Positions 1,417 to 25,016 of a stretch of DNA of 25,016 bases are shown one piece after another (the stretch's first letter is position 1; each line of letters starts with the position of its first letter). The position numbers were made by a program, and so were the translations under genes. The notes beneath the pieces were generated by a model. That model had not been told where the DNA came from and made no database searches. It saw only the letters and a program-made list of their open reading frames with translations. Location: IMG/VR virus record IMGVR_UViG_3300021438_000067, positions 1 to 25,016 of that record, one strand, 5' to 3'. The DNA comes from a virus.

Positions 1417-1430
1417 CTTTAAGGACTACT

Positions 1431-1823: not shown

Positions 1824-1824
1824 C

Positions 1825-2737: not shown

Positions 2738-2739
2738 TT

Positions 2740-3560: not shown

Positions 3561-3562
3561 TA

Positions 3563-4939: not shown

Positions 4940-5107
4940 TGCTTCCATGTCCTTTAACAGTAGGTACACTGTTGGGCATGGGTAGGCTATTTCTGAGCCT
5001 TTGAGGGCGCTGCAGTGTGTGCAGCATTCTTCATGTTCTGCGTGGAGTGCGTAGATTGCGTTTAGGTTTGTGAACATGATGCGTGATGATTCTAGTACTG
5101 CGTCCAT
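4922..5107 (-). CDS. 61-residue Cys-cluster protein
   Basis: The last gene of the long minus-strand operon; its ATG shares a base with the stop of the giant gene (TAATG). The N-terminal half is a short helix; residues 19-50 hold YALHAEHEECCTHCSALKG and then AYPCPTVYLL, with C28, C29, C32 and C44 plus two His. Small proteins with an H-x(n)-C-x-x-C ... YPCPT pattern are common in actinophages; I infer a structural zinc site. The stop codon sits in the loop of the operon terminator, so the gene reads to the very end of the transcript. The role is unknown. Confidence 0.6.
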   Translation of the reverse strand: MDAVLESSRIMFTNLNAIYALHAEHEECCTHCSALKGSEIAYPCPTVYLLLKDMEAEKPAE

Positions 5108-11307: not shown

Positions 11308-11337
11308 GATAAGACCGTCCTAAACTGTATTTAGTCC

Positions 11338-11343
11338 AGTATA
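11338..11343 (-). promoter_or_regulatory. Possible -10 element before the giant virion gene
   Basis: In the 47-base gap upstream of the TTG start, the minus strand reads TATACT, with a predicted transcript start about 24 bases before the TTG and a ribosome site between. No convincing -35 is seen. The gap is unusual for this operon, where other junctions overlap or nearly so, which is the main reason to suspect a local promoter. Confidence 0.25.
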
Positions 11344-11354
11344 ACTTATTTGGG

Positions 11355-12524: not shown

Positions 12525-13270
12525 TATGCTACTCCGTATTGTGCTAGTCGTGCAGTGATTGCGTTCTGTGCAGCCTGCGTCTTGTATTGCTGACCAGCGA
12601 GTGTGCCAGTCCAGTCATAGGTGCTCTTGCCAGCCGAGTCTACCGCGCTAACATCTCCATAGTTTTCTAGGAAGTTCTGGTTTAGTGCTGAAAGTTTATC
12701 CTTTAGGGATGTTTGTGCAGCAATCTGTCGTGCGTTGGCTTCTGCTTCTGCGAGGGTAAGTGCGCCTGCTGCACCGCCAGCCATTCCACGAGCAGCATAG
12801 TTACCTGCTAGACGGCGACGTGATTCGGTAGAGTTTAGGTCTAGCGCTTTTCGGTCCTGTGACGCTTGTGAGGTTTCAGCATTTAGGTCAAACATTGCCT
12901 TGTTACGGGCTAGGTTAAACTGTGACTGTCCCTGCAGGATTCCCTGCTGGTATAGTGGGTCGCCCTCAAGTGACCAAGGCGTTCCGGTAACGGTACCATC
13001 TGTAGTCGAGCCAGAAGTTGCATCACTTGCGGTTACAGGCTGGGCTGAATCTGAGGCTGGTAGCACACCACCCGGCTTGTCATTTAGAAGCAGGTTTGCG
13101 TTTCTGCGTGCTAGCACTTCTGAGTTGTTTGCTGGTGCTACAGCAGGAACTACACCGCCCGGCTTACCGTTTAGTAGAAGGTTTGCGTTTTGGCGTGATG
13201 ACATTTCTGCAGCGTTTGCTGCAGGCTGTGCATTTGCGTAAATTTTCCAGTAGGAGTCAGCTGTAGGCAT
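12524..13270 (-). CDS. Virion protein with an 18-residue internal duplication
   Basis: A 248-residue protein with TAATG junctions at both ends. The N-terminal 75 residues contain two copies of an 18-residue unit: RQNANLLLNGKPGGVVPA (26-43) and RRNANLLLNDKPGGVLPA (55-72). A Ser/Thr/Asp linker follows (about 75-98). Residues 105-248 are Ala/Gln/Asn-rich helix with DPLYQQGILQGQSQFNLARN at its start and a Gly-rich turn (ARGMAGGAAGALTLAEAEA). The composition and the coupling to the 389-aa gene suggest a small internal or tail-associated virion protein. The function is unknown. Confidence 0.55.
   Translation of the reverse strand: MPTADSYWKIYANAQPAANAAEMSSRQNANLLLNGKPGGVVPAVAPANNSEVLARRNANLLLNDKPGGVLPASDSAQPVTASDATSGSTTDGTVTGTPWSLEGDPLYQQGILQGQSQFNLARNKAMFDLNAETSQASQDRKALDLNSTESRRRLAGNYAARGMAGGAAGALTLAEAEANARQIAAQTSLKDKLSALNQNFLENYGDVSAVDSAGKSTYDWTGTLAGQQYKTQAAQNAITARLAQYGVA
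13055..13195 (-). repeat. Two copies of a duplicated 54-base coding unit
   Basis: Copy 1 spans 13142-13195 and copy 2 spans 13055-13108, 87 bases apart, encoding R-x-NANLLLN-x-KPGGV-x-PA. The protein differs at three positions; the DNA differs more, mostly at third bases, so the duplication is not recent and the motif appears to be kept by selection. Confidence 0.8.
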
Positions 13271-13506
13271 TATTTACCGAACCTTAGTGCGTTAGCGTTA
13301 GCGTAAGCGCCAGTGTTATTTGCTTTGATTTTGGCTAATACTGCAGCTTTTTTTGCTGCTATGCGTGCGTCACGTTCAACGTAGCCAGTTCTGTCAACTT
13401 TGCCACGTGTAGGTGCGTGGGTCATGTTTCCGTAAACTTTTTTACCTGCAGCGTATGGGTTGAATTCGAAGCTGCCTAGCAACGCATTGCGTTCAGCACC
13501 AGCCAT
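13270..13506 (-). CDS. 78-residue basic virion-operon protein
   Basis: Bounded by TAATG junctions on both sides. The protein reads LLGSFEFNPYAAGKKVYGN, HAPTRGKVDRTGYVERD, then a basic helix (ARIAAKKAAVLAKIKANN) and ends ANALRFGK. It is small, basic and Gly/Asn/Ala-rich with no membrane segment or Cys. Position between the nozzle-like and internal-protein genes suggests a minor virion component. I do not recognise the family. Confidence 0.5.
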   Translation of the reverse strand: MAGAERNALLGSFEFNPYAAGKKVYGNMTHAPTRGKVDRTGYVERDARIAAKKAAVLAKIKANNTGAYANANALRFGK

Positions 13507-15158
13507 TAGTTAGCTTCCTTCGTAATCTTTGCCTTCGCACCAACCATTGGAGTGATGCTGAAAACTTGCACAGGGGATGTGAGCGCCGTACCGTCACAGT
13601 CTAAGTATAGTTCAAAGTAGATTCGGCGGAAGCGTAGAGACTGGTTTAGCTTTGCTTCCATTCTTAGCACTGCTCCGGCGGAGAAGTCGTCTACGATTGT
13701 TGATACTGCACCTGATGGCTTAGCTAGGTTGTCCCATGTGCCAAAGGTTACGTCGTCAATGTTGTCTAGGGATAGTTCGTCCCAAGTTTTGTACCCTGTT
13801 TCTGCAGGATAGTCTTTGGAGATTTGGTCCCAGTTCAACTGCAACGCCATTTCTGGTAGGGCTACAGGGTATGCGACTGCCTTAACTGGTAGTGCGGTTG
13901 CAATATCTGCAGTCCACATGTATAGACGTTTCCATTCGACAGGTGATTGGAAGTCGTAAATCTTTGTGCGGATTGAGCACTTGAAGGTTTCTGTGCCTAC
14001 TGCGCTAGTTGATTTGTCTTCAATGCGCCACATGGCAAAGTCGGATGCGCCTGCTGCGCTAGTGCCACCACTGATACCAAAGAAAAGAGATTCTTCTAAT
14101 TCTTCTGAGCGTCGAGGTACGCTCCAATAGTATGCGACTCTGCTTGTGCTTTCCCATTCGCTCCACGTCTCAGTATCAAGGTTGTAGGCAAACACTCCCC
14201 CGTTGTGCCATACAATACAGCGTCTTCCGACGATGGATACTGCGTGCTGGAATCTTTGACCGAAGTCGTATGCCTCAAACTTTACTTTAGCGGCATTTAG
14301 TGGGTAGTACAACCAGTTCTGGTATTTGTAAAGTATGCCACCGGATAGGACGAAGTGGGCGTTTTCAAACTTTACCACTGAGCGTCGTGATTCGGCACCG
14401 ATATCTTGCTGCATTGCTTGCATGGTGCCTTCTTCTGGCACGTCACCGTAGCTGTAGCGGTAGGTTGAACGGTTGCGGAAGATTACGATGTCGTTATAGC
14501 CTTGTGCGATTGCGGTAATCCATTGACCGTCTCCGCCACCGATTTCTACATACATTTGGTTGTTGTATGTGTTTACCCATGACCAGACTGAGGTTGATTC
14601 TCCTGATGGTCCTGCGGTTGAGACGTTGCTCCAGTAGAGAATGTTGGCATTTGCGGTGCCTTGTACGCCGTGTCCGAAGAAGCGTGTTTGAAAGAGTTCA
14701 ATACCGCCAAGTGCTGGCATTGACGGGGTGTTTACGAATACGCCTGATTCCCAGTATCCGCCTTGTCCGCTAACTGTTGACGAGAGGACAATCTTGTTTA
14801 GGTACTGGGTGCAGTCTGATGCTTTGAAGTTTGCGATTTGTACGAATGCTTTGGTTAGGACGTCGAATGTCCAAGTTTTGGTGTTGGTTACCACGACTAG
14901 GAAGCGTGCCCCGTCTGCACGAATGTAGGTTCCTAGGATGTCCATTGGTTCACCTGCTACAGGTGTCAGGACTGGGGTTGTGCCGTTCTTATCCACGTAG
15001 ATTGGTGGGCGAGACATAAGTGCACCGTTGGTTGAAAACTCAAAGTTTACGATTGATGCTAGTTCGTTGTCTGCAATTGCTGACTGGTCCCAGTAGTTGT
15101 TTAGACCGCCAGTGAACTGTTGTAGGGTTGCGCTTCGTGAGCGAACAATTTGTGACAT
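13506..15158 (-). CDS. Tail nozzle / DNA-stabilising beta-propeller-like protein
   Basis: A 550-residue protein. The N-terminus has the hallmark of podophage nozzle and packaged-DNA-stabilisation proteins: LQQFTGGLNNYWDQSAIADN, ELASIVNFEFSTNGALMSRP. This family (T7 gp12-like, P22 gp10-like) closes the tail tip beneath the portal. The middle is strongly beta with repeated aromatic-rich strands (RFLVVVTNTKTWTFD, ILYKYQNWLYYPL, WEWESTSRVAYYW in looser form), consistent with propeller blades. Its ATG lies directly after the stop of the adaptor-like gene, and its stop overlaps the next start. The fold is inferred from pattern, not proven. Confidence 0.6.
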   Translation of the reverse strand: MSQIVRSRSATLQQFTGGLNNYWDQSAIADNELASIVNFEFSTNGALMSRPPIYVDKNGTTPVLTPVAGEPMDILGTYIRADGARFLVVVTNTKTWTFDVLTKAFVQIANFKASDCTQYLNKIVLSSTVSGQGGYWESGVFVNTPSMPALGGIELFQTRFFGHGVQGTANANILYWSNVSTAGPSGESTSVWSWVNTYNNQMYVEIGGGDGQWITAIAQGYNDIVIFRNRSTYRYSYGDVPEEGTMQAMQQDIGAESRRSVVKFENAHFVLSGGILYKYQNWLYYPLNAAKVKFEAYDFGQRFQHAVSIVGRRCIVWHNGGVFAYNLDTETWSEWESTSRVAYYWSVPRRSEELEESLFFGISGGTSAAGASDFAMWRIEDKSTSAVGTETFKCSIRTKIYDFQSPVEWKRLYMWTADIATALPVKAVAYPVALPEMALQLNWDQISKDYPAETGYKTWDELSLDNIDDVTFGTWDNLAKPSGAVSTIVDDFSAGAVLRMEAKLNQSLRFRRIYFELYLDCDGTALTSPVQVFSITPMVGAKAKITKEAN

Positions 15159-15824
15159 TTAGTACCACGCATCTGCTGGGTCTGCCATTACTGCAGTGTA
15201 CTGCGAGTCCTGAGAGATAGTGTCTTTGGTTGATAGTCGGTCTAGACCGTCACGGAACTGGCGTAGCTTCATGTTTGAAGCGTCGTAGTTCTCGTCCATT
15301 TCTAGTGCCTGTGCGATGACGTAGCTGACTAGTTCGTTGAAGTAACGGTCTGGCACTGCAAGGGCTGAGCTTAGAACGCTTAGGTTGATAGGGTTACTTA
15401 CGTATTCTAGCTTTAGACCGTTTGAGATGGTCTTGTTTGGTACTGGGAATAGGGTGATTATGCCAGCACGCTCGTACCAGACGTCAGGGCGCTCAGAGTT
15501 CAATAGTTTTGCTGGGTCTTGAGCCTGAATGTACTCGCGTGCTGCTTGTGGTGACAGGTTGGTCAGTGGGTAACCTGAAATGTATAGTGCCTCGATTGAG
15601 AGCACCTTATCGTTAGGGAAGCTATAATCTGACTGCCCTGCCACCACATCTGTAATTTTTGTTGCTCGTAGGATTGGGTTTGAGTTTACAATCTCGCGCT
15701 GTCCGTCGTTAATCCAAGAGAGGATTGATGAGTCTGCGAGTTGTGCGCCAGAGGAATCGCCGAATCCCGTGCGAACACGTGAGGCTACATCTGTACCTGT
15801 GTGAGTAAATTCCTCTGCTGGCAT
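15159..15824 (-). CDS. Head-tail adaptor-like protein
   Basis: A 221-residue protein. I choose ATG 15824 because AAGGAAG sits five bases upstream and the preceding gene stops two bases before it; an in-frame ATG 36 bases further upstream lies inside the preceding gene with a poor site. Residues about 28-60 read LADSSILSWINDGQREIVNS and ATKITDVVAGQSDYSFPNDK, the pattern of phage adaptor proteins that bridge portal and tail (DUF6682-like, functionally like T7 gp11). The C-terminal half has a helix (RYFNELVSYVIAQALEMDEN) and ends DAWY. It abuts the nozzle-like gene, as the adaptor and nozzle genes often do. Confidence 0.6.
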   Translation of the reverse strand: MPAEEFTHTGTDVASRVRTGFGDSSGAQLADSSILSWINDGQREIVNSNPILRATKITDVVAGQSDYSFPNDKVLSIEALYISGYPLTNLSPQAAREYIQAQDPAKLLNSERPDVWYERAGIITLFPVPNKTISNGLKLEYVSNPINLSVLSSALAVPDRYFNELVSYVIAQALEMDENYDASNMKLRQFRDGLDRLSTKDTISQDSQYTAVMADPADAWY

Positions 15825-15826
15825 TT

Positions 15827-16243
15827 CTACTTCCTTAGAGTTTGACCGTCGTGAGTCCAAGTGTGTTTATTGGACTTGAGAGCGCTTTTCAGAATGTCTT
15901 TCTTTTCAGCTCGCCATTCTTCTTCACGTTTCGCCTCTAACGCTGCATGAGCCATCTCCAACAATTGTAACTTATTTACCTTGGAATCTGGGTCGTGCAT
16001 GTTGGATTCCATTAGGCGTGCAAGTAGTCGGTGGTCAATCTCCGACTCGTGCACGTTGGTGATTAGGTAGGCGTGCCCGATTGGTGGTTCGTCGATGAGT
16101 GCGAATGGCATCTCTGGGTTGAACTGTGGGTGTCCCGGCTCCATACGGATTAGGCGGACTGACGGGAATACATCTTTGATGACTGCTGCAACCCGTCTCT
16201 GTTGGTCGGTGTATAGACCATCTAGTTGTGCAAAATTTATCAT
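15827..16243 (-). CDS. 138-residue virion-operon protein, unknown, probably leaderless
   Basis: The first gene after the capsid terminator. Residues 1-80 contain a small mixed domain (YTDQQRRVAAVIKDVFPSVR, PGHPQFNPEMPFALIDEPP), then a charged helix (LEMAHAALEAKREEEWRAEK) and the end HTWTHDGQTLRK. The placement between capsid and adaptor-like genes suggests a head-completion or neck protein, but the family is not recognised. The ATG has no Shine-Dalgarno; a TACAAT hexamer ends 6 bases before it, so a leaderless transcript restarting just after the terminator is likely. Confidence 0.55.
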   Translation of the reverse strand: MINFAQLDGLYTDQQRRVAAVIKDVFPSVRLIRMEPGHPQFNPEMPFALIDEPPIGHAYLITNVHESEIDHRLLARLMESNMHDPDSKVNKLQLLEMAHAALEAKREEEWRAEKKDILKSALKSNKHTWTHDGQTLRK

Positions 16244-16249
16244 GTTTCT

Positions 16250-16255
16250 ATTGTA
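16250..16255 (-). promoter_or_regulatory. Possible -10 element for a leaderless transcript
   Basis: TACAAT on the minus strand ends 6 bases before the ATG at 16243, immediately after the T-run of the capsid terminator. The predicted start of transcription is the ATG itself. No -35 is visible, since that stretch is the terminator stem. Confidence 0.4.
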
Positions 16256-16257
16256 GT

Positions 16258-16306
16258 AAAAAACCCCCCTAACCAGCGAGACGGACCGGTTAGGGGGGAG
16301 TTTTTT
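16258..16306 (-). terminator. Terminator after the major capsid gene
   Basis: A perfect 11-base inverted repeat, CCCCCCTAACC (16264-16274) and GGTTAGGGGGG (16288-16298), with a 13-base loop, flanked by six A on the left and six T on the right. It can stop transcription in both directions; leftward transcripts from the capsid gene (stop at 16316) meet it within 20 bases. Confidence 0.9.
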
Positions 16307-16315
16307 ACTGAGCTA

Positions 16316-17545
16316 TTATGCGCCTAGTTCGGCGATGTTCGATAGCTTAGCGTGTGCGTTACGACGGTAGGTACCGATTTCGCTGTACTGGTACAGACGA
16401 GCCTCGTATGCGTCGGTGTTTGCAACACGTGACCACATTGAACCGTCGCGGTCCATCCATGACCAGTCCTTCTTGCGGTTGATGACAAGTTCCTTCGATG
16501 ACAACGCGTAGATGGTGCCCTTTGGAGCTGCGTAGTCTGAAACGAACTTGATTGGCTTACCTAGAGCCTCGAAGGTGAATGAGCGCTGACCACCAGTTAG
16601 ACCTGCACCGTTGGTGAACTGACGCATACCCTGAAGCAAGTTCCAGTAAGCGTTGTATACACCCGGTGATGCTAGGAATACGTCGACGTCGCCACCCTTC
16701 TTGTCTACAGCCTGTACTAGCGAGATGAGGTCCATCTCGGTTAGGGTACCCGGGGTACCGACTGAGCCAAGAGTGCGGATGGTTGAGTTCCAAGAAGAAA
16801 CGGTTGCGCCGTCGATGCCGTGTAGTGAGTTACCTGAACCCACGATTGCACCTAGACCAGTTAGTTCCTTGTTGAATGAGTTAGCGCCACCTGATGCGCG
16901 GACGATGATGTCGCCTACTGCAGCAGTGGTGGTGGTGTCGAAGGTTACAGCGCCAGTGGTCTCGTTCACTGCTACTACAACTAGGGCTGCCTTCTTAACG
17001 GTAGGGGTACCGTCAACTAGGTCAGTTCCGTCGAGTAGGTCAACAACCATACCCTCTTCAATCCAGTGTGCGTCAACGAATACTACGGTTGCGTTTGCAG
17101 TGGTAACTGCAGTCTTTACAGCACCGAGGGTACCTGATGCGTCACCGTAAATCTGACGGTTTAGGTCGCGAGTTAGGTCGCGCTTTAGACCCTTGATTTC
17201 AGCGTCAACAACGTTGATGAATGAGTTGTAGTTGTCTGCAGCCTGCTCGAATAGCTGTCCGTCAACCTCGATTGCACCGTATAGGTTCTTGAGGTATAGG
17301 TGAGCCTGCTTGTACTTCTGTGCGCCTGCTACTGGTAGAGCCTCGCGTACACCACGTGCACCGATACCCTGATTGCGTCCGATGTGAGTGTCGAATACGA
17401 CCTCTTTACCGTTCTGGGTGATGTGCTGTGCTGATGATTCGATGAACTCCAGTGCTGGGTTCTTGTCTGCAAGCTGTTCGTGAAGGTCGCCATAAACGAG
17501 CTTCAGCGCGTCACTTGCGAAGGTTAGGATTCCCTGACCTGCCAT
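16316..17545 (-). CDS. Major capsid protein (HK97-fold type)
   Basis: A 409-residue protein from ATG 17545. A GTG nine bases upstream in frame is only one base from AGGAG and so cannot be the start. The order portal-scaffold-this gene, its length, and segments such as EFIESSAQHITQNGKEVVFD, RGVREALPVAGAQKYKQAHL and LYGAIEVDGQLFEQAADNYN (E-loop and spine-helix region) identify the main shell protein. Further helix and A-domain stretches include WNSTIRTLGSVGTPGTLTEM. A Gly/Thr/Val-rich region (about 150-225) may be an inserted beta domain. It is transcribed from its own promoter at about 17640 and ended by the terminator at 16258-16306, so it can be made at high level alone. Confidence 0.85.
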   Translation of the reverse strand: MAGQGILTFASDALKLVYGDLHEQLADKNPALEFIESSAQHITQNGKEVVFDTHIGRNQGIGARGVREALPVAGAQKYKQAHLYLKNLYGAIEVDGQLFEQAADNYNSFINVVDAEIKGLKRDLTRDLNRQIYGDASGTLGAVKTAVTTANATVVFVDAHWIEEGMVVDLLDGTDLVDGTPTVKKAALVVVAVNETTGAVTFDTTTTAAVGDIIVRASGGANSFNKELTGLGAIVGSGNSLHGIDGATVSSWNSTIRTLGSVGTPGTLTEMDLISLVQAVDKKGGDVDVFLASPGVYNAYWNLLQGMRQFTNGAGLTGGQRSFTFEALGKPIKFVSDYAAPKGTIYALSSKELVINRKKDWSWMDRDGSMWSRVANTDAYEARLYQYSEIGTYRRNAHAKLSNIAELGA

Positions 17546-17637
17546 GTGATTCACTCTCCTAAGAGTAAAAGAAAAAAACGAAAGTTAGTGTTATCGCTTG
17601 CCCTGACCACTCTTAGTGGCTGTACGTAGATATTTGT

Positions 17638-17646
17638 ATAGTAGCA
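17638..17646 (-). promoter_or_regulatory. Extended -10 promoter for the capsid gene
   Basis: On the minus strand, TGCTACTAT (17646 to 17638) is an extended -10, nearly identical to TGCTATTAT before the operon at 124. The predicted 5' leader is about 85 bases and contains a small hairpin, CCACT (17607-17611) with AGTGG (17615-17619), then AGGAG before the ATG. It lies between the scaffold terminator and the capsid gene. Confidence 0.45.
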
Positions 17647-17670
17647 CAGTTCTTTTGTAGGTATGATACA

Positions 17671-17699
17671 AAAAACCCCGCCTTTTATTGACGGGGTTT
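17671..17699 (-). terminator. Terminator after the scaffold gene
   Basis: Inverted repeat AAACCCCG (17673-17680) and CGGGGTTT (17692-17699), with GGC/GTC partly extending the stem, and a T-run on the minus strand, so it ends leftward transcripts. A second inverted repeat, CAGATGT (17705-17711) with ACATCTG (17716-17722), just upstream, spans the scaffold stop codon. Confidence 0.8.
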
Positions 17700-17713
17700 G
17701 ATGTCAGATGTCT

Positions 17714-18559
17714 TTACATCTGTCGCTGGCGCTCCTCGAACATGCGTTGTAGCATTTCCTTCTTGCCCTTGTCATCCTTTGGGATGGTTAGTGACTGGTA
17801 AGGTACGCCTGCTCCGCCAGCAGAACCCATGATAGTGGGTGCTTCTTCTTCTGTGCTAGCTGGTGCAAATGAGCCAATCATTGCCTGAAGCTGTTTTGCT
17901 GCTTCGGCTACGCTGATGTCTCGTCCAGCATTTAGTGCAGCATTCATTAGGTCATAGATGGCTACTTCGTGGGCTTCTGAAATGTCGTGAGCCTTACGAA
18001 GTTTGTCCATTTCTGCCTCAAGTGCATAGGTGACATTTTCGGTTTCTTTTGCAAGTTCCTGCTGGTAGATGTAGTCGTCTACTTCTGCAGTCTTAGCCTT
18101 TAGGGCGTCAAGTTCCTTCTGTAGAGCTGCTGGAACTTTTTCACCGTCGAACATGTCTTCGAAGTCTTCACCAGACTCTTCTTCCATGATGTCCTTAGCC
18201 ATCTGCTTGGCTTCTTCGGCTAGCAGTCCCTGACTAGATAGGTAGTCTTTTAGGTTGTTGTAAACCTCTGTTGGGTCAGATTCGATTGCGCGGGCAATAT
18301 TTAGTCCGCCACGCATTAGTTCTGGAGAGACACCTTCTTCGATGAATTCCTTGTATGGGGTGAACTGTTCAATCTGCTTCTGGAAGTTGCGTTCGTTTTC
18401 CTGAAGGTAAGGGGTTACTTTTGAGTGCCATGCTTCAGGTAGCTCTGCAAGCATCTTGTCCCATGCGGGATGTACTTTAGTTTCTTCAACTGATGAAGTT
18501 TCTACTGAAGCATTATCTTCAATAGTCTGCTCAGGTGTTACCTGCGTCTCGTCAGACAT
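17714..18559 (-). CDS. Capsid scaffolding protein
   Basis: A 281-residue acidic, helical protein between portal and capsid genes, the usual place for a scaffold. The first 30 residues are Glu/Thr/Ser-rich and disordered; then HPAWDKMLAELPEAWHSKV and TPYLQENERNFQKQIEQFTP, typical of podophage and siphophage scaffolds. A long coiled coil follows (about 140-200, PAALQKELDALKAKTAEVDD), then a linker, and a basic C-terminal helix (KKEMLQRMFEERQRQM) that would bind the capsid protein. No protease domain is seen, so it is probably removed intact or by an unseen protease. Confidence 0.8.
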   Translation of the reverse strand: MSDETQVTPEQTIEDNASVETSSVEETKVHPAWDKMLAELPEAWHSKVTPYLQENERNFQKQIEQFTPYKEFIEEGVSPELMRGGLNIARAIESDPTEVYNNLKDYLSSQGLLAEEAKQMAKDIMEEESGEDFEDMFDGEKVPAALQKELDALKAKTAEVDDYIYQQELAKETENVTYALEAEMDKLRKAHDISEAHEVAIYDLMNAALNAGRDISVAEAAKQLQAMIGSFAPASTEEEAPTIMGSAGGAGVPYQSLTIPKDDKGKKEMLQRMFEERQRQM

Positions 18560-18567
18560 TTATTTCC

Positions 18568-20736
18568 TTACTGTAGTTGCGTTGAGGTTAGACCTGCTTG
18601 AGCAGGCATTTGTGAAGCCTCAGACGGCAAAGCCTGAGGGGCTCCTGCAGCATTAGGTGCTTGACCCATTGCTGCTTCTTGCATCATTTTCTGCTGCAAA
18701 GCGTTTTCGTGCATCGAGATGTGCTTCTGGAACTCTGCCTTGATTTCGTCTGGCAGGATGTCGAAGCTCTGCGACTTACGGAAGCGGTTGTGTACTTCGA
18801 TGTGTACAGCGTGGTTGTCGTATGAGTGTACCTGTACGACGGCTGGGACTGCAAGTGGGATTGGTTGACCGTTTGCGTCGACTTGTCCCGGAACAATCTT
18901 GTCTGGTTGACCTGCTGCAGCGCCCTGTTCCCATGCGTCTTGGAACTGCTGAATTTCTTCTGGGGTTAGGCGCTTCATCTGCAAGTTTTCGCGTGCAGCG
19001 TGGTTCTCGTCCAACTTGATTAGGTTGTAGAAGTTCTTGAGCATGCCCATGTCGAGCATCTTTAGACCTTCTTGAGGGGTGATGAACTGCATCTTCATCC
19101 ACTCTGTAATCAGAGCCTGTCGTGCAGACTTTGAGGTTGGGAGCGCTGAGCCTGATTCGATGCGGATGTCGTTGCCTGATGCGATGTCTGCACCTGCTAG
19201 TACGGTTGCGTCGAATGCTCCATCGGTTCCAATGGTTTTGATTAGACGCGGGGTGGTGACGTACTGGATGAATAGTGAGATTGCCTGCTTAGCGGTCTTT
19301 TCTACTGCAGCTTCGATGCTTGCAAAGATGGTAGTTAGGTAGGCGTCGTCGCGTTCCTGTAGGTAGTTGATTGCAGTTGCTGCGGTTACGCCACCTGATT
19401 GTCCACGTGAGACTTGGTGCTGACCTGATAGGTCTTCAAAGTCTGATTCAAGTTGCTGCACTTCTTGTAGTACGTAACTTGGTAGTGGCTGGATTGGGAC
19501 TGGCTGTGGCATTGCAAAGCCCGGACGGACTGGAATCCATAGACCTGCTTTTGCTGACAGCTTGCGTGGGTCTACTGCACCTTCGTGGTACATCATCTGA
19601 GGCTTAGCCATGAGGTTTTTTGCCTGAATGATTTGTGAGCGGGTGCGGTTTAGTTCACGCTGGATTGGGATTAGGTTCTTGATTACTGAGCGACGGTAGA
19701 AGCGTCCAGTTGGGATTGAGTATGCGTGTGCGAATGGGTATGACTTGTGCGAGTAAGGAATACCGTTTTCTGCGAACTGTACGATTTCGTTATCGACGAT
19801 GGTGATTAGACCACCCTTTGGTAGGAATGGGCAACCGTTTGGCTTTGCCCACATTTCGATTACGAGTACGGCGTCTGGCTTTGCAGTGTTGCCACCCTTT
19901 ACGTCCATCATGGTTGCGTCCATGATTTCAGTTGCTGATACCTTTGCAGGCTTGAAGTCACTTGGTAGTACTCCACCGAAGGTGCTCTTCACCCAGTTCT
20001 CTGACTTGGTGTAAACATTGAATAGGTATGGCTGGTTTTCAATGTTCTCTTCTGCAAGGTCTGGTACGAAGAGGTGGAATGGTGAGACGACTTCGAATGC
20101 TACGTCGCCCTTTGAGGTTTCTTTTTGAACAATTTTGCGTTCGCCAGTGTATGGGTCTTCGACTGGGGTTGGGGTGATTTCTCGTGCCGACGGGTCCCAG
20201 TAGGTTTTGGTGAAGACGTTACCGCAGACTGCACGCCAGAACTCAGACTTCTGGAGGACGTCGGTCTGGAAGTTTGCCTTGTCGTACATTGCCTGCCAGA
20301 CCTGCTCGGCAGCAGTTGCAGCCATTAGGTCATCGTCGTCGTTTGATGCTGGTACAACGGTTGCGCTTGGGTGACCTGATGAGGTCTTAGCAATCTCAGT
20401 TCGGATGATTGGTTCAATTTTGTTGACAACGATGCGTGGAGTTCCGGCGGGGTTTGGCGCTTCAATTAGCTGCTTTGGTGCGCCCTTGACGACCTCAGTC
20501 CAATCGCGGTACTGGGTGCCGTTGTAGAACGCCAACTGTAGGTACCAGTCTTGTTCTTCCTGCTTGCGAGCCTGCTTGGCTTTTTCGTACTCAGACTTAA
20601 CCCAAGCGACTAGTTTCTTCGCTTCGTCCTTGCGCTTGAACTGGTTGAGGATGCTGTCGTTAGCAAGCTCGCCCTCAACTGGGGTACCAGAAATGTACTG
20701 CCCAGTCTTGCCGTCAAAGTATTGTTCGTTTGCCAT
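18568..20736 (-). CDS. Portal protein
   Basis: A 722-residue protein forming the DNA entry ring at one capsid vertex. It follows the terminase genes and precedes the scaffold. The size and segments match podophage portals: WYLQLAFYNGTQYRDW early, PRIVVNKIEPIIRTEIAKTS, RRSVIKNLIPIQRELNRTRS in the middle, and SGQHQVSRGQSGGVTAATAI with NYLQERDDAYL at about 440-470. The C-terminus is Gln/Ala/Pro-rich (EAAMGQAPNAAGAPQALPSE), probably an internal barrel or flexible tail. The ATG is 14 bases after the previous stop, with GGAATAGG as a weak ribosome site. Confidence 0.85.
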   Translation of the reverse strand: MANEQYFDGKTGQYISGTPVEGELANDSILNQFKRKDEAKKLVAWVKSEYEKAKQARKQEEQDWYLQLAFYNGTQYRDWTEVVKGAPKQLIEAPNPAGTPRIVVNKIEPIIRTEIAKTSSGHPSATVVPASNDDDDLMAATAAEQVWQAMYDKANFQTDVLQKSEFWRAVCGNVFTKTYWDPSAREITPTPVEDPYTGERKIVQKETSKGDVAFEVVSPFHLFVPDLAEENIENQPYLFNVYTKSENWVKSTFGGVLPSDFKPAKVSATEIMDATMMDVKGGNTAKPDAVLVIEMWAKPNGCPFLPKGGLITIVDNEIVQFAENGIPYSHKSYPFAHAYSIPTGRFYRRSVIKNLIPIQRELNRTRSQIIQAKNLMAKPQMMYHEGAVDPRKLSAKAGLWIPVRPGFAMPQPVPIQPLPSYVLQEVQQLESDFEDLSGQHQVSRGQSGGVTAATAINYLQERDDAYLTTIFASIEAAVEKTAKQAISLFIQYVTTPRLIKTIGTDGAFDATVLAGADIASGNDIRIESGSALPTSKSARQALITEWMKMQFITPQEGLKMLDMGMLKNFYNLIKLDENHAARENLQMKRLTPEEIQQFQDAWEQGAAAGQPDKIVPGQVDANGQPIPLAVPAVVQVHSYDNHAVHIEVHNRFRKSQSFDILPDEIKAEFQKHISMHENALQQKMMQEAAMGQAPNAAGAPQALPSEASQMPAQAGLTSTQLQ

Positions 20737-20750
20737 AAGCCTATTCCGAA

Positions 20751-21074
20751 TCAGTTATACGTATCGAAGATGGCAGAGAGGTTTCTTTCGGCTTCTTCAA
20801 GCTCTAATTCTTCGCCAGTCTTATAAAGTCCAGTATAACCAGTTTCTTCTGGATAGGCAGGTGCAACAGTTACTGCCTGTACTTGCTGGAATGCTAGTGG
20901 GTCTTTACTTGCTAGCAGGTTTGATAGGTGGATTAGCACTTCTTTTTGCATTGTTGATGCTTGTAGAAGGTTGTGAGACTGGTAGTTCAGGCTCTTTGTC
21001 ATCCTCTGGACGAGGTACACTGTCGCCGTAAGAAATAGCAAAGATAAAATCAGTAACGCTGCTGCGAATTCCAT
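20751..21074 (-). CDS. 107-residue single-TM protein overlapping its neighbour
   Basis: Begins at ATG 21074 with GAGGA about 8 bases upstream, inside the 146-aa gene, and overlaps that gene by 170 bases in another frame. Residues 3-23 are a membrane span (FAAALLILSLLFLTATVYLV). Then comes a helix (YQSHNLLQASTMQKEVLIHL, NLLASKDPLAFQQVQAV) and an acidic tail (EELELEEAERNLSAIFD). N-terminal anchoring with a cytoplasmic or periplasmic helix could fit a spanin, an accessory membrane protein or a packaging-linked protein; I cannot tell which. Confidence 0.65.
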   Translation of the reverse strand: MEFAAALLILSLLFLTATVYLVQRMTKSLNYQSHNLLQASTMQKEVLIHLSNLLASKDPLAFQQVQAVTVAPAYPEETGYTGLYKTGEELELEEAERNLSAIFDTYN

Positions 21075-21345
21075 TGATAAGTTCCTCTACGTGGTCTGGC
21101 ACTCTTGCGAGTTCTCTTTCGTGTGCTTCGACGTCCATCTTAAGGGTGTCGATTTCTTCTTCTAGTGGGATTGGGTTAGCCCAACCAATAAATTCTGATA
21201 GTTCCTTGATGCAAGTTATGCAAATTTGCGCTTCGCCACCTGATAGTAGCTCTCGGGTTAGCCCATAAATGTTTTTGTTTGCACCACAGGATACGCATGA
21301 CGAGGGAAATGGTCCGCCATTTTCGTAATAGTTAAAGTGTCTCAT
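20905..21345 (-). CDS. 146-residue four-Cys (zinc-finger-like) protein
   Basis: Starts three bases after the terminase stop. Two CxxC pairs, C17-V-S-C20 and C42-I-T-C45, lie 22 residues apart with a compact domain (PFPSSCVSCGANKNIYGLTR, AQICITCIKELSEFIGW), a typical zinc-ribbon spacing. Residues about 60-90 form an acidic helix. The last 55 residues (SVPRPEDDKEPELPVSQPST onward) are polar and look disordered; they are read from DNA that also encodes the membrane protein at 20751-21074. The role is unknown; DNA or protein binding near packaging is a guess. Confidence 0.65.
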   Translation of the reverse strand: MRHFNYYENGGPFPSSCVSCGANKNIYGLTRELLSGGEAQICITCIKELSEFIGWANPIPLEEEIDTLKMDVEAHERELARVPDHVEELINGIRSSVTDFIFAISYGDSVPRPEDDKEPELPVSQPSTSINNAKRSANPPIKPASK

Positions 21346-21348
21346 TCT

Positions 21349-22884
21349 TTATCCTTCTAGTTCACTAATTGATGACGTTGTGCGCCATTCTTGACCCCAA
21401 GGGTCAGGCTCATCATACTCTGTAAATTTGCTTGTTGCACCAAACTGCTCCCTAAATGCTGAGTGGAACGCTTGGCTTTGGTTCTCTGAAGAGTATTCTG
21501 CAGGGGTCAAGTCTGGCATGAAAGTCATTGCATATTTCAATGCGTCATAGCAGTGGTTGTCCTTGTCGCGGATTTCCTCTAGCTTGTTTTTCATCTCAGC
21601 AATCTTTGGAGATGCGTGCTTTTTCCATTTTAGTTTAGGGATTTCTGCAATTAGTTCTGGGCAGTCATCCGTGAACATAAGGTATGGCTTGTTTGTTTTT
21701 GGGTTGACTTTCATGTACTGCTGGATGCGCTCCAGACCAATACGTCGGTCGTTAGGAATCTGGTCTACTGCAATGTAGATGCCATGCTTCGCGTACTCTT
21801 GCTGGATTGAGGTTCCGGTATGCTCTTTTGTTTGTTTGATTGCCGGGTCCCCGGTAGTAAGGTAAAGTTCCGCACCTGACTCTCGTAGAATTTTCTTCGT
21901 CCGAGCATTAACTTCTTTGGAGTGGTAGTCAACATTCTCTCTCGCTTTGTGGTACTCGCTGAAGACGATAATAGTTCCATCTTTGTCAACTGCCATCCAC
22001 AACCAGACGGTGGGGTTGGTGTATCCGCTATCCATTGTTCGAATAATTCGATGCTTGCCAGTGGGTTTGAACTGTCCTTTAGGAATACAGTGTGTGAGAG
22101 GACTGAATTCTGGAAAGACTGCACCGCCAAGATGGACGTACTGTCCGTTACGTCGAATGAGTTGCTCTTCTGGGGTGAGCGACTCCATGTAGCGTGCGAT
22201 AGCTTCTCTAGAGAGTGTTGGGTTATCGTCCATAGTTGCTTCAACGATGCCAATGTCTTTGGTTCCTTCTTGTGCTGGGATGTATACGTCTTCGAGAATC
22301 CACTCCATGCCTTGGACTGGGGTTTGCGACATCCACCAGTCGCCGTCGGTGTCGATGAGTCGGGCTAAACATTCTTGCCACACAGTTTTTGGGCACTCTT
22401 CGTCAAAGTGGATGAAGTGGCGGGATGAACCTGCGAACTTATCTAGGTCTTGGTCTTGCGACATGAACTCTACGAATGAGCCGTTGTTGAGTGTTAGTAC
22501 GTGGCGTTCGCGAGAGTATGAATCTTCCCATGAACCATTGATTAGGTACTTCTTTGGTAGCCACTGCTTCCAGAGTGGGAGGATAATTTTGTCTACACCG
22601 TTTAGGAAGTCAACTGCGACCACTCGTCCACGGATTGGCTCATCAGGCATCTTACGAAACGGGTGGGTTTTAGTAACCCAGTAGATTCCTTCAATGGTTG
22701 AGCCTAGCGATTTGCCTGAACGGTTACCGCCAATGTATAGGCGTGCTTTTTGTGGCAGGGCATGAAATGCTTCCTGTTTTGGCGAGGCTTTGTAGTTGTA
22801 AAGATTTGGTAGCGCAGCAGATTCTTGGATTGATTCGCCAAGCCCACGCAGGGCATCTTCTAGGTTGAAGTTATCTCTCGCCAC
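21349..22884 (-). CDS. terL: Terminase large subunit
   Basis: A 511-residue packaging motor. The ATPase has Walker A GGNRSGKS (52-59), and Walker B with catalytic acid HFDEE (159-163). The C-terminal RNase H-like nuclease carries likely metal-binding acids D285 (IRTMDSGYTNP), D346 (LYLTTGDPAIKQ) and D447 (NHCYDALKY). It would pump DNA through the portal and cut concatemers. It starts at GTG 22884 and overlaps the nuclease gene's end by 14 bases; the ribosome site (GGA) is weak, so translation may be coupled. Full length, no damage seen. Confidence 0.93.
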   Translation of the reverse strand: MARDNFNLEDALRGLGESIQESAALPNLYNYKASPKQEAFHALPQKARLYIGGNRSGKSLGSTIEGIYWVTKTHPFRKMPDEPIRGRVVAVDFLNGVDKIILPLWKQWLPKKYLINGSWEDSYSRERHVLTLNNGSFVEFMSQDQDLDKFAGSSRHFIHFDEECPKTVWQECLARLIDTDGDWWMSQTPVQGMEWILEDVYIPAQEGTKDIGIVEATMDDNPTLSREAIARYMESLTPEEQLIRRNGQYVHLGGAVFPEFSPLTHCIPKGQFKPTGKHRIIRTMDSGYTNPTVWLWMAVDKDGTIIVFSEYHKARENVDYHSKEVNARTKKILRESGAELYLTTGDPAIKQTKEHTGTSIQQEYAKHGIYIAVDQIPNDRRIGLERIQQYMKVNPKTNKPYLMFTDDCPELIAEIPKLKWKKHASPKIAEMKNKLEEIRDKDNHCYDALKYAMTFMPDLTPAEYSSENQSQAFHSAFREQFGATSKFTEYDEPDPWGQEWRTTSSISELEG

Positions 22885-23311
22885 GGATTAGTCCAACCAG
22901 TTCTTGTAGACGTATACGCACAAGGGTAGCGTCAGTACTAGGGAGGTGATTGCGAAGTTCAAATAGGTCTCCGAGTTTTGCATAAGCCCACCATTCACCA
23001 GCCCGTGGAGCACCCACACCAGCACGCTGAGTGACGAGGAAACCAAAGCGACCATTTGCATTGGCTTTTTCAGTTTCGGCTTCTTGGAACCATTTTTCGA
23101 TTTGCCCATATGAAGCCTCCTTAGCAGCCTTGCCACCTTTGATTTCGAAGACGATTAGTCCGCGTAGTGGTTCGCGTAGCCAAACATCACCTTCGTCATT
23201 TGTTCCTTTTAGAACGTTGCGGTGTGCTTCTAGTTCGCTGTATCCCTGTGCAAGTAGGTGCTTGCGTACAGCGGTTTCGGCAGCCGTGCCGATTTGCTTT
23301 GCTTTACTCAT
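22871..23311 (-). CDS. PD-(D/E)XK nuclease, Holliday-junction resolvase-like
   Basis: A 146-residue protein from ATG 23311, chosen because GGAGGAG (23318-23324) is six bases upstream; an open frame further upstream overlaps the opposite gene. The motif residues are E12 (IGTAAETAVRKHLLAQGYSE), D42 in NDEGDVWL and E56-x-K58 in VFEIKGGKAA, the PD-(D/E)XK arrangement found in phage resolvases and related endonucleases. Residues about 90-110 (GRFGFLVTQRAGVGAPRAGE) continue the fold. Placed before the terminase large subunit, it probably trims branched DNA before packaging. A full 222-base membrane-protein gene is embedded in it. Confidence 0.72.
   Translation of the reverse strand: MSKAKQIGTAAETAVRKHLLAQGYSELEAHRNVLKGTNDEGDVWLREPLRGLIVFEIKGGKAAKEASYGQIEKWFQEAETEKANANGRFGFLVTQRAGVGAPRAGEWWAYAKLGDLFELRNHLPSTDATLVRIRLQELVGLIRGER
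22888..23109 (-). CDS. Embedded two-TM protein, holin candidate
   Basis: A 73-residue gene lying wholly inside the PD-(D/E)XK nuclease gene in another frame. Its ATG (23107-23109) follows a near-perfect ribosome site, AAGGAGG, at a spacing of about 6 bases. The N-terminus is strongly basic (MGKSKNGSKKPKLKKPMQ), then two hydrophobic segments, about 19-38 (VALVSSSLSVLVWVLHGLV) and 50-68 (NFAITSLVLTLPLCVYVY), joined by a polar loop, ending KNWLD. This is a class II holin layout. It ends 4 bases before the terminase start. The combination of a strong ribosome site and TM topology makes chance unlikely, though not excluded. Confidence 0.6.
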   Translation of the reverse strand: MGKSKNGSKKPKLKKPMQMVALVSSSLSVLVWVLHGLVNGGLMQNSETYLNFAITSLVLTLPLCVYVYKNWLD

Positions 23312-23333
23312 GGTCGTCTCCTCCGGTATGCGA

Positions 23334-23343
23334 TAGAATTCTA
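23334..23343. promoter_or_regulatory. Palindromic bidirectional -10 element
   Basis: TAGAATTCTA is a 10-base palindrome between the divergent genes at 23311 (minus) and 23346 (plus). It gives TAGAAT on both strands. On the plus strand it ends 6 bases before ATG 23346 (leaderless). On the minus strand it is preceded by TGT (extended -10), giving a leader of about 20 bases that holds GGAGGAG. No -35 is clear for either direction. Confidence 0.4.
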
Positions 23344-23345
23344 AC

Positions 23346-23600
23346 ATGCCTATTAGCCCGTCATCAGAAGAGGTCAACCTCTTCCACATGAATTCCGATA
23401 AGGATTCTAGTGCGCTTGCTTTGCACCACACCCTTGGGTCTGGTCCTTCGCAGGCGTCTCCCGGTGACCATGTGCATGATGGTAAGTCTTCTAAGCGCAT
23501 CAAATTTGATGACCTTGAGGGCGGATGGATGAACATAGACGGCGGTAGTCCAACTTCGGTTTTTGGCGGTTTGCCAACTTTTGACGGTGGAGGAATCTAA
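23346..23600 (+). CDS. Short His-rich tail-associated protein
   Basis: An 84-residue protein. The centre reads ALALHHTLGSGPSQASPGDH and VHDGKSSKRI, the HHTLG...ASPGDHxHDG pattern common in short actinophage tail-region proteins, followed by a Gly/Asp-rich end (GGSPTSVFGGLPTFDGGG). No ribosome site precedes the ATG; a TAGAAT ends 6 bases upstream, so the mRNA is probably leaderless. Its TAA shares a base with the fibre ATG (TAATG). It may be a fibre attachment or assembly partner; this is inference. Confidence 0.6.
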   Translation: MPISPSSEEVNLFHMNSDKDSSALALHHTLGSGPSQASPGDHVHDGKSSKRIKFDDLEGGWMNIDGGSPTSVFGGLPTFDGGGI

Positions 23601-25016
23601 TGACTGTTCGTTTGCAACTACGCGGTGGTACTGCTGCTGCTTGGACTGCAGCTAACCCTGTTCTTGCTGACCGTGAGTTTGCTGTTGAGACTGACACTAT
23701 GAAAGTCAAGATTGGCAACGGCACGTCGAACTGGGTTTCTCTTGCGTATATGACGCAGGGTACTGCAGGTTTGTCGGCTTACCAGATTGCTTTGGCTAAC
23801 GGTTATGTTGGTACGCAGGCTCAGTGGCTGGCTTCTTTGCAGGGTATTCAAGGTATTCAGGGTATTCAGGGCATTCAAGGTATTACTGGTTTGCCTGCTG
23901 ATTTTATTGCAGTGTATCCGGATGCCGCTACTTTGCTTGCTGAGTATCCTACGCCTGCTAGTTCTGCCGTATGGGCTTTGGTTAAGGACCCTGCAGATGA
24001 GACAAAACTTTACTTGTATTCGAAGGCTAATGGTACGAACGCTTGGGGTTCTTCTGTAATTGATTTGCCTCGCGGCATTCAGGGCATTCAAGGCATTCAG
24101 GGCATCCAAGGTATTCAGGGCGTCAAGGGCGATAAGGGTGACAAGGGCGATACTGGTCTTCAGGGTATTCAGGGTGTTCAGGGTGAAACTGGTCTAACTG
24201 GTGCTACTGGTGCTACTGGTGCTCAGGGTCCTATTGGTTTGACTGGTGCTACTGGTGCTACTGGTGCAACTGGTGCTAAGGGTGATAAGGGTGACCAAGG
24301 TATTCAGGGCATTCAGGGTGCTACTGGTCCTCAGGGTATTCAGGGTGAGATTGGTCCTCAGGGTATTCAGGGTATTCAGGGCGAGGTGGGTCCTCAGGGT
24401 GCTAAGGGCGACAAGGGCGACCAAGGTATCCAAGGCATCCAAGGTATCAAGGGTGACAAGGGTGACACTGGTGATACTGGTGCTACTGGACCTCAGGGTC
24501 CACAGGGTATTCAAGGCATTCAGGGAGACCAAGGTATTCAGGGTCCAACTGGTGCGTTTGGTGGTGCAGTTTTTAAGTACAACTATCTAACTGATACGGC
24601 AGACTCTAACCCAGGGTCAGGAAACCTGAAACTAAATAACACTATTCATGGCGCTACCGAACTTTATATTAGCTACTTTGACTTTGATGGCGTTGACGCA
24701 TCTGCTTACCTTGAAACTATTGATGATTCTACGTCAACTATCAAGGGTCACTTCCGCATTGAAGAAGTGGGCAATCCAAATAACTTTGCTTATTATGCAA
24801 TCAATGGGTACCACTATTCACATGATACCTATTTTGAAGTTCCTATTGTTTGGCTTTCAGGTTCTGTAACTACGTGGGCAAATGGTGTGGATGTAGACAT
24901 CACATTTGTGCGCACTGGTGATAAGGGTGATGCTGGGCTTGGCGGAGCGCAGGGTAGCTGGGGTTCATTCTGGGATACCACTACTCAGACTGCAGCAGCG
25001 ACTGATACGCCTTATG
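23600..25016 (+). CDS. Collagen-like tail fibre, cut by the right edge
   Basis: At least 472 residues, still open at the window end. Residues about 3-50 (RLQLRGGTAAAWTAANPVLA, then AVETDTMKVKIGNGTSNWVS) match the N-terminal virion-anchor domain shared with Mtd-type fibres. Residues about 56-78 (SAYQIALANGYVGTQAQWLA) are a usual fibre link. A short Gly-Ile-Gln run (79-98) follows, then a 60-residue globular insert (96-157), then a long Gly-x-y collagen-like rod (about 158-319) of GIQ, GPQ, GDK and GAT triplets, then a beta-rich domain (about 325-435) that may be a host-binding head, and GSWGSFWDTTTQTAATDTPY at the edge. It should form a trimeric host-recognition fibre. Confidence 0.8.
   Translation, partial: MTVRLQLRGGTAAAWTAANPVLADREFAVETDTMKVKIGNGTSNWVSLAYMTQGTAGLSAYQIALANGYVGTQAQWLASLQGIQGIQGIQGIQGITGLPADFIAVYPDAATLLAEYPTPASSAVWALVKDPADETKLYLYSKANGTNAWGSSVIDLPRGIQGIQGIQGIQGIQGVKGDKGDKGDTGLQGIQGVQGETGLTGATGATGAQGPIGLTGATGATGATGAKGDKGDQGIQGIQGATGPQGIQGEIGPQGIQGIQGEVGPQGAKGDKGDQGIQGIQGIKGDKGDTGDTGATGPQGPQGIQGIQGDQGIQGPTGAFGGAVFKYNYLTDTADSNPGSGNLKLNNTIHGATELYISYFDFDGVDASAYLETIDDSTSTIKGHFRIEEVGNPNNFAYYAINGYHYSHDTYFEVPIVWLSGSVTTWANGVDVDITFVRTGDKGDAGLGGAQGSWGSFWDTTTQTAAATDTPY
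23837..24560 (+). repeat. Collagen-triplet DNA repeats (GGTATTCAG-type 9-mers)
   Basis: Two blocks (about 23837-23893 and 24072-24560) of 9-base Gly-x-y triplets, mostly GGTATTCAG / GGCATTCAA variants for Gly-Ile-Gln, with GATAAGGGT and GCTACTGGT types between. The synonymous mix of third bases shows the array is old or under codon diversification, though runs of four identical units suggest slippage or gene conversion. Confidence 0.85.

What the first reader, a model, noticed from the sequence alone, without database searches (positions are those of the whole stretch)
20751..21345. Second out-of-frame overlap producing a membrane protein
The four-Cys protein and the 107-aa TM protein overlap by 170 bases, again with the inner gene one base out of frame and again with a good ribosome site (GAGGA) inside the outer gene. 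The part of the outer protein in the overlap is low-complexity and polar, as expected if the membrane gene overprinted it or the outer gene lengthened into it. Two such events within 2.5 kb, both in the same relative frame and both giving TM proteins, suggest that this frame of the A/C-rich coding strand tends to yield hydrophobic peptides.
Basis: partly seen in the sequence, partly recalled or inferred. Interest (0 to 1): 0.6.

Follow-up and report, generated by a model that had tools for sequence, protein, structure and literature searches.

The report
Hidden gene nested beside phage portal
A small, mostly membrane-anchored protein is encoded out of frame inside another gene, between the terminase and portal genes of a large group of viruses that infect actinobacteria; the arrangement is ancient, and current annotations leave the gene out or cut it short.

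Summary
The overlap is real. On the minus strand a 146-aa four-cysteine gene (21345-20905) and a 107-aa one-TM gene (21074-20751) share 170 nt; the inner gene is in the +1 frame with its own ATG and a GAGGA site 8 nt upstream. It is not a local accident or a sequencing error. All 55 distinct loci tabulated have the inner gene in the +1 frame. Among 75 loci picked only by terminase similarity, 70 have a +1-nested TM gene and none a +2 one; four of the other five have a +1-nested gene without TM. Of 136 other genes in those loci, none contains such an ORF. The inner gene is under purifying selection throughout the overlap; the outer gene only over its first 17 overlapping codons. The inner family has no Pfam or NCBIfam family and only weak spanin matches in PHROGs; isolates lack it or annotate it truncated. 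Most likely function (inferred): a membrane-anchored coiled-coil adaptor for portal/head assembly. Rivals: LysF1b-like lysis protein; host takeover.

The parts
20905..21345 (-). Outer gene: 146-aa four-Cys (CxxC...CxxC) protein, predicted zinc-ribbon-like N-terminus, two helices, disordered tail
   Evidence: homologues; AlphaFold (helices 61-80 and 82-107; pLDDT under 50 over most of 110-146)
20751..21074 (-). Inner nested gene: 107-aa protein, N-terminal TM, long helix, conserved NLLASKDPLAFQQ motif, acidic C-terminus; +1 frame of the outer gene
   Evidence: AlphaFold (helices 2-57, 59-69, 87-106)
20905..21074 (-). 170-nt overlap of the two genes
   Evidence: codon-position entropy; two-frame dN/dS
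21083..21087 (-). GAGGA ribosome-binding site of the inner gene, 8 nt before its ATG
   Evidence: a Shine-Dalgarno-like site at this place in 51 of 55 distinct loci against 14-15% at other positions of the outer genes
21003..21065 (-). TM segment of the inner protein (residues about 4-24), predicted N-out/C-in
   Evidence: hydropathy; flanking charges
20883..20921 (-). Conserved NLLASKDPLAFQQ motif of the inner protein (residues 52-64); the outer stop codon lies inside it
   Evidence: alignments
21025..21075 (-). Doubly constrained part of the overlap: outer helix residues 91-107 together with inner start and TM
21211..21297 (-). Cys-rich region of the outer protein (C17, C20, C42, C45)
   Evidence: sequence; weak resemblance to the ClpX zinc domain
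21349..22884 (-). Terminase large subunit, immediately upstream
18568..20736 (-). P22-like portal protein, 14 nt downstream of the inner gene's stop

Best explanation
The inner ORF is a genuine, independently initiated gene, nested in the +1 frame of a zinc-ribbon/coiled-coil gene. The pair is an ancient, fixed part of the terminase-portal block of a large clade of phages whose named hosts are all actinobacteria. Shown by computation: conserved +1 nesting, start codon, ribosome site, synteny and purifying selection on the inner frame. Inferred: the inner protein sits N-out/C-in in the host membrane, its long cytoplasmic helix oligomerises, and its LLxSKDPLAFQQ motif binds a head-assembly partner (portal or procapsid, perhaps together with the outer protein). 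It would thus anchor or chaperone early head assembly at the membrane, as T4 gp40 does for the T4 portal. One subclade has kept the nested coiled-coil gene but lost the TM, so the cytoplasmic part would be the functional core and the anchor an accessory. The nesting would tie its translation to the late genes on either side.
For: Real gene: all 55 distinct loci +1-nested, overlap 95-332 nt; 70 of 75 terminase-selected loci with a +1-nested TM ORF and 0 at +2, four of the remaining five with a +1-nested ORF without TM; 0 of 136 control genes; ATG in 53 of 55 and a ribosome site in 51 of 55 against 14-15% background; inner dNN/dNS 0.50 [0.38-0.62]; the most variable codon position is the outer third outside the overlap (1.62) and the inner third inside it (1.15, against 0.78 at the outer third). 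Assembly role: in all 44 of 54 loci where the portal-sized ORF is held it begins within -113 to +14 nt of the inner stop; no K/R before the TM in 53 of 54 and K/R after it in 54 of 54, predicting C-in; the cytoplasmic motif is the most conserved part; the TM-less form is a single clade inside TM-bearing ones; T4 gp40 precedent (PMC9958956, passages).
Against: No direct evidence of function: no family and no fold match for the inner protein. Two of 51 inner members match the Rz-like spanin PHROG weakly (best E 4e-4). A one-TM, N-out/C-in protein with a helical tail also describes the mycobacteriophage lysis protein LysF1b. In five of the TM-less members an extra gene lies between the inner gene and the portal or next large gene (L176, L179, L184, L188, L192), so tight portal linkage is not universal. 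The topology rests on charge alone. The sequence pairs behind the dN/dS estimate are not independent.
Confidence: 0.42

Rival explanations
1. The inner protein is a lysis effector of the LysF1b kind: a one-TM, N-out/C-in helical membrane protein that works with a holin to trigger lysis of a Gram-positive host.
For: Same size class (94-155 aa among the loci; LysF1b-like 92-150 aa), single N-terminal TM, basic residues after it, extended helix (PMC13056207, abstract and passages). Two of 51 members hit the Rz-like spanin PHROG (best E 4e-4). In Microbacterium phage Shocker an annotated peptidase and membrane protein, and in ctEqG8 a muramidase, lie just upstream of the terminase.
Against: It is not in the lysis cassette: the window's M23 endopeptidase and its neighbouring small TM ORFs are at 2486-3560, about 17 kb away. 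No sequence match to any mycobacteriophage among 50,697 phage records at E up to 1. The most conserved part is a cytoplasmic motif, not the TM. One clade has lost the TM but kept the gene, which a membrane lysis protein could not do. The window protein's cytoplasmic part is about 20% K/R/D/E (my count by eye), less charged than the ~50% reported for Girr gp35.
Confidence: 0.17
2. The pair acts in host takeover or superinfection exclusion: a membrane-anchored coiled coil (inner) with a soluble zinc protein (outer) binding a host target at the membrane. The position beside the portal would be only a convenient late promoter.
For: Small, poorly conserved, one-TM proteins often have such roles (recalled). 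The outer zinc domain weakly resembles the ClpX zinc-binding domain (VIA-align Z 4.0 over 38 residues; Foldseek E 2.0; Pfam zf-C4_ClpX E 0.43).
Against: Universal presence and fixed position between terminase and portal over a clade whose terminases fall to 36-41% identity is unlike accessory genes, which come and go. The ClpX-domain match is below significance, and 19 of 54 outer proteins lack the CxxC...CxxC pattern.
Confidence: 0.13
3. The inner protein is a virion component, for example an ejection protein or a portal-associated internal protein, whose TM inserts into the host membrane at infection.
For: Position beside the portal in a podovirus (Jasmine-group morphology, PMC5513430). Small helical proteins are ejected by other podoviruses (recalled).
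Against: A very hydrophobic N-terminus right after Met suggests co-translational membrane insertion. No match to known ejection proteins in PHROGs.
Confidence: 0.12
4. The nested ORF is not an independent gene: it is a passive frame of the outer gene, or is reached only by ribosomal frameshifting from it.
For: The +1 frame of the outer gene stays open in 38% of synonymous resamplings.
Against: Conserved ATG and ribosome site, inner dNN/dNS 0.50, a conserved motif partly beyond the outer stop in the window, and 0 of 136 control genes with such an ORF. The same entropy test gives a clean negative on the passive 82-aa ORF.
Confidence: 0.02

Closest known systems
Lambda Rz/Rz1-type embedded spanin genes
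   Same: A small gene in the +1 frame inside another, joined to a coiled-coil/TM protein; often missing from annotation (196 of 528 o-spanins missing, PMC6139136, passages).
   Different: The outer protein here is soluble with no TM-like segment and no lipoprotein partner is seen; predicted topology is N-out/C-in; named hosts are actinobacteria; the place is terminase-portal, not a lysis cassette; frame always +1, whereas spanins use both.
LysF1b of mycobacteriophages Girr/NormanBulbieJr
   Same: One N-terminal TM, predicted N-out/C-in, basic residues after the TM, extended helix, about 100-150 aa (PMC13056207).
   Different: Not in the lysis cassette, no sequence similarity found, carries a conserved KDPLAFQQ motif and acidic tail, and exists without TM in one clade.
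T4 gp40, membrane-bound portal assembly chaperone
   Same: Works-like comparison only: a phage factor needed to assemble the portal initiator at the inner membrane (PMC9958956, passages).
   Different: No sequence or structural relation tested; T4 is a myovirus of a Gram-negative host.
phi29 p16.7 membrane replication organiser
   Same: Works-like comparison: a phage protein that organises a process at the membrane (PMC11476376, passages; its N-terminal TM and coiled coil are recalled).
   Different: p16.7 is an early DNA-replication protein; the inner protein has an acidic tail and lies in the terminase-portal block.
Jasminevirus (Arthrobacter phages Jasmine, Brad, Adat, Casserole)
   Same: Isolated members of this clade; they carry the nested gene (152 aa, or 151 in Jasmine; overlap 329-332 nt).
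   Different: The gene is absent from all 8 GenBank/RefSeq records found (feature tables viewed for 5 of 8).

Membership tests
Same-strand nested (overlapping) gene pair | Inner ORF with its own start and ribosome site inside another gene, conserved across relatives | tested here: met
   55 of 55 distinct loci +1-nested; start codons and ribosome sites
Same-strand nested (overlapping) gene pair | Purifying selection acting on the inner frame | tested here: met
   dNN/dNS 0.50 [0.38-0.62]; entropy swap; negative control behaves differently
Two-component spanin (Rz/Rz1) | o-spanin: outer-membrane lipoprotein with lipobox | tested here: not met
   Neither protein starts with a lipoprotein signal by inspection of P0001/P0002; the outer protein has no TM-like segment
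Two-component spanin (Rz/Rz1) | i-spanin: one N-terminal TM with coiled coil, N-in/C-out | tested here: inconclusive
   TM plus long helix; charge distribution predicts N-out; 2 of 51 members hit phrog_89
Two-component spanin (Rz/Rz1) | Gram-negative (diderm) host | tested here: not met
   Named hosts or sources are actinobacteria: Arthrobacter, Cellulosimicrobium, Microbacterium, Streptomyces contig, Solirubrobacterales MAG; the window's own host is unknown
LysF1b-like lysis protein | Single N-terminal TM, N-out/C-in, about 92-150 aa | tested here: met
   (topology by charge only)
LysF1b-like lysis protein | Gene in the lysis cassette next to endolysin and holin | tested here: not met
   Between terminase and portal; the window's M23 endopeptidase is at 2740-3285
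LysF1b-like lysis protein | Deletion gives a lysis defect | not testable with these tools
   needs genetics
T4 gp40-like portal chaperone | Required for membrane-bound portal initiator assembly | not testable with these tools
   only position and anatomy agree
T4 gp40-like portal chaperone | Sequence or fold similarity to gp40 | tested here: inconclusive
   No family match in Pfam, PHROGs or NCBIfam and no fold match for the inner protein
C4 zinc-binding domain (outer protein) | Four conserved metal-ligand cysteines | tested here: inconclusive
   CxxC...CxxC in 35 of 54 outer proteins; others have lost cysteines; weak ClpX ZBD match Z 4.0

The most novel reading that the evidence does not exclude
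The nested pair is a two-protein module, encoded in one stretch of DNA, that docks portal or procapsid assembly (or the packaging motor) on the cytoplasmic membrane in a whole clade of phages of monoderm bacteria. The soluble zinc/coiled-coil protein and the membrane-anchored coiled coil would be obligate partners whose 1:1 supply is enforced by nesting; the TM-less subclade shows the switch to a cytosolic version.
Probability: 0.2. Interest if true: 0.75.

Novelty: new variant of a known kind. Interest (0 to 1): 0.58.

Why it matters
It adds a conserved, previously unrecorded gene to a clade of phages with isolated, laboratory-grown members, and shows that gene callers missed or truncated it in every annotated record examined. 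A nested arrangement kept while terminases diverged to about 36-40% identity is a good natural system for asking why overlaps persist: coupling, stoichiometry, or simply that two doubly constrained segments cannot be pulled apart. Three sets of related phages (nested TM gene, nested TM-less gene, short Cys protein without nesting) make the origin and the TM loss testable. If the assembly role holds, it would indicate membrane-docked head assembly in phages of monoderm bacteria.

Tried and rejected
Rejected: the compositional explanation (12 other minus-strand genes have no TM-like +1 segment). Rejected: the second nested ORF at 22888-23136 as a comparable event; its frame is mostly open in close relatives (a stop before codon 75 in 2 of 14), but the start codon is not kept and the codon-position pattern is that of the nuclease alone. 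Rejected: sequencing frameshift. Rejected as sole route: ribosomal frameshift fusion, because the inner ATG and ribosome site are conserved; slippery sites were not searched for.

Led nowhere: genome-contig search with the inner family (0 relatives among 23 pattern matches); phage-record searches with three inner proteins gave no match, weak local matches or only the Jasmine group (the Jasmine group itself); searches with outer proteins L098, L046 and L104 gave only self hits or nothing; Foldseek for the inner protein gave no significant match, and none at all in the PDB second look; Pfam, NCBIfam and solved-structure profiles gave nothing usable for the inner family, and the coiled-coil hits for the outer protein (best E 0.0057, Mediator subunit 21/SRB7) look like coiled-coil chance. 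phrog_37518 contains the Arthrobacter outer protein but has no function. Literature: no paper describing this nested gene was found in the held library by the searches (six searches; subscription journals and preprints are largely not held), so this is not proof of absence from print.

Caveats on counts: one search tabulated 67 of 68 loci given (L074, cut by the contig end, gave no inner ORF), 55 distinct; L070 lacks the outer start. One search had 80 loci: 5 terminases run off the contig, 70 hits, 5 misses of which L169 holds only about 500 nt downstream. The tree used 86 rows: 14 of the labelled Bacillota-type rows were chosen by me, and the L044 and L178 labels were set by hand. In one search, 17 of 78 Bacillota-type loci were labelled as a Cys protein without a nested ORF; two of these (L214, L221) look like shadow ORFs, and both labels entered the tree. 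Eleven of the 70 sequences are identical to sequences, so the union is 114 distinct inner sequences.

Full report
What is there. The window is a 25-kb virus record. On its minus strand the order is terminase large subunit (22884-21349), a 146-aa four-cysteine protein (21345-20905), a 107-aa protein with an N-terminal TM (21074-20751), and a P22-like portal (20736-18568). The two small genes share 170 nt.

The arrangement is conserved. Searches with the inner protein and its alignment found 33 and 58 viral loci, and with the outer protein 7. Of 68 loci examined (window included), 67 gave an inner ORF, 55 of them distinct. In all of these it lies in the +1 frame of an outer ORF, with overlaps of 95 to 332 nt. 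The place where the outer gene stops moves from 104 nt before to 130 nt after the inner motif, while the inner start always stays inside the outer gene. The start is ATG in 53 of 55, and a Shine-Dalgarno-like site precedes it in 51 of 55, against 14-15% at other positions and other ATGs of the outer genes.

An independent sample. To avoid choosing loci by the feature itself, I searched with a terminase profile and kept the 80 best loci. In 75 the terminase end is held. Seventy of these carry a +1-nested ORF with an N-terminal TM, and none carries one in the +2 frame, although many inner sequences are too diverged to show the motif. Of the five misses, L169 is cut off, and L176, L179, L184 and L188 carry a +1-nested ORF that is a soluble helical protein without TM. 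Circular genome ctEqG8 and a Solirubrobacterales MAG contig have the same TM-less form. As a control, 136 other genes of 100-320 aa in the same loci contain no nested TM ORF by the same criteria.

Selection. Among 29 close relatives, in the part of the outer gene before the overlap the third codon position is the most variable (entropy 1.62 against 0.94-0.98). Inside the overlap the outer third position, which is the inner second, becomes the least variable (0.78), and the inner third position the most variable (1.15). A two-frame dN/dS estimate gives 0.50 [0.38-0.62] for the inner gene over the overlap. For the outer gene it gives 0.21 [0.05-0.57] over the first 17 codons but 1.08 [0.71-1.59] over codons 18-54 (pairs are not independent, intervals are codon bootstraps). 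The border agrees with the predicted structure: the outer protein's last helix ends at residue 107, 17 codons into the overlap, and most of residues 110-146 have pLDDT below 50. So the two proteins are both constrained where the outer helix meets the inner start and TM, and beyond that the outer tail is largely a by-product of the inner sequence.

Composition does not explain it. The +1 frame of 12 other minus-strand genes has no TM-like segment. It is the plus-strand genes, rich in T at the third position, whose +1 frames tend to be hydrophobic.

Age and polarity. On a terminase tree of 86 rows, the 72 phages with a nested gene fall on one side of a fully supported branch, and 14 Bacillota-type rows without it on the other. 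The six TM-less rows form one fully supported clade, inside a 12-row group whose other members have the TM, so the TM was probably lost once (quick tree, SH-aLRT only, the root placed by me on the Bacillota rows). In 17 of 78 Bacillota-type loci a Cys protein, mostly of 57-108 aa, is found near the portal with no nested gene (at least two of the 17 look spurious). This suggests that the Cys protein is older and that the nested gene arose in a lengthened 3' part of it, but loss in the Bacillota line is not excluded.

Hosts and annotation. Named members are phages of Arthrobacter, Cellulosimicrobium and Microbacterium, a Streptomyces griseosporeus contig and a Solirubrobacterales MAG contig: all Actinomycetota. 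[quoted passage not shown] In the 8 Arthrobacter records the nested gene is not annotated (feature tables seen for 5 of 8). It is absent from the DS1 table. In both Shocker records it is annotated from a downstream start that drops the TM. In ctEqG8 only the 3' part is annotated. The inner protein has no Pfam or NCBIfam family, and of 51 members scanned only two reach any PHROG, the Rz-like spanin family, at E 4e-4 at best.

How it may work. AlphaFold gives the inner protein one helix from residue 2 to 57, a short helix over the motif, a weak linker and an acidic C-terminal helix (mean pLDDT 78.6, pTM 0.38). Charges predict N-out/C-in: one of 54 proteins has any K/R before the TM, all 54 have K/R after it. 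The cytoplasmic motif LLxSKDPLAFQQ is the most conserved part. The portal-sized ORF begins from 113 nt before to 14 nt after the inner stop in all 44 of 54 loci that hold it. Retention of the nested coil without TM in one clade argues that the cytoplasmic part is what matters. From this I infer a membrane-anchored coiled-coil adaptor for head assembly, comparable in working to T4 gp40, which is needed for the membrane-bound portal initiator (PMC9958956, passages). The main rival is a lysis effector like LysF1b (PMC13056207, abstract and passages), which shares size and topology but sits in the lysis cassette. Against it stand the position, the absence of sequence matches and the TM-less clade. 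Neither role is shown.

Novelty. Nested same-strand genes are a known kind in phages, with Rz/Rz1 the best-known case, and o-spanin genes are often missed in annotation too (196 of 528, PMC6139136, passages). This pair fails the spanin tests of lipoprotein partner and, for the named members, diderm host. It is a new nested family in a new genomic place: a new variant of a known kind. I found no description of it in the papers searched.

Noticed in passing
window 22871-23536: The first ~70 residues of the 221-aa nuclease ORF align in several relatives as a separate piece in another frame (e.g. L054 1043-1249 and 1254-1703), so in relatives these are probably two genes; the window's true nuclease start may lie further in.
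   Followed up: no
window 22888-23136: 82-aa +1 ORF with hydrophobic segments inside the nuclease gene: frame mostly open in close relatives, but start not kept and no inner-frame constraint.
   Followed up: partly
window 2486-4087: Apparent lysis cassette on the plus strand: 83-aa ORF with a C-terminal hydrophobic segment, M23 endopeptidase, 91-aa ORF with hydrophobic segments, LysM protein.
   Followed up: partly
window 3563-4087: The LysM protein carries several near-identical repeats of a SRNAPGSN-type unit that are open on both strands (97-aa ORF 3673-3966 on the minus strand).
   Followed up: no
window 210-4087 (+) against 5107-22884 (-): Strong strand-linked third-position bias: plus-strand genes are T/G-rich at codon position 3, most minus-strand genes A/C-rich, which makes +1 frames hydrophobic on the plus-strand genes.
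   Followed up: partly
window 23600-25016: Long collagen-like GIQGIQG/GATGAT repeat protein running off the window end.
   Followed up: no
window 5107-11307: 2066-aa minus-strand protein with no Pfam match at E 0.01, probably a large virion protein.
   Followed up: no
L193-L270: In many Bacillota relatives a conserved ~85-115-aa protein (…ALGYxxxEVVEEY…KKxVPPD…) follows the terminase; it looks like a terminase small subunit (recalled resemblance) and has no counterpart noticed in the actinobacterial clade.
   Followed up: no
L176, L179, L184, L188, L192: In the TM-less clade an extra gene with an 'AFLREEI(D/E/S)E' motif lies between the nested gene and the portal or next large gene.
   Followed up: no
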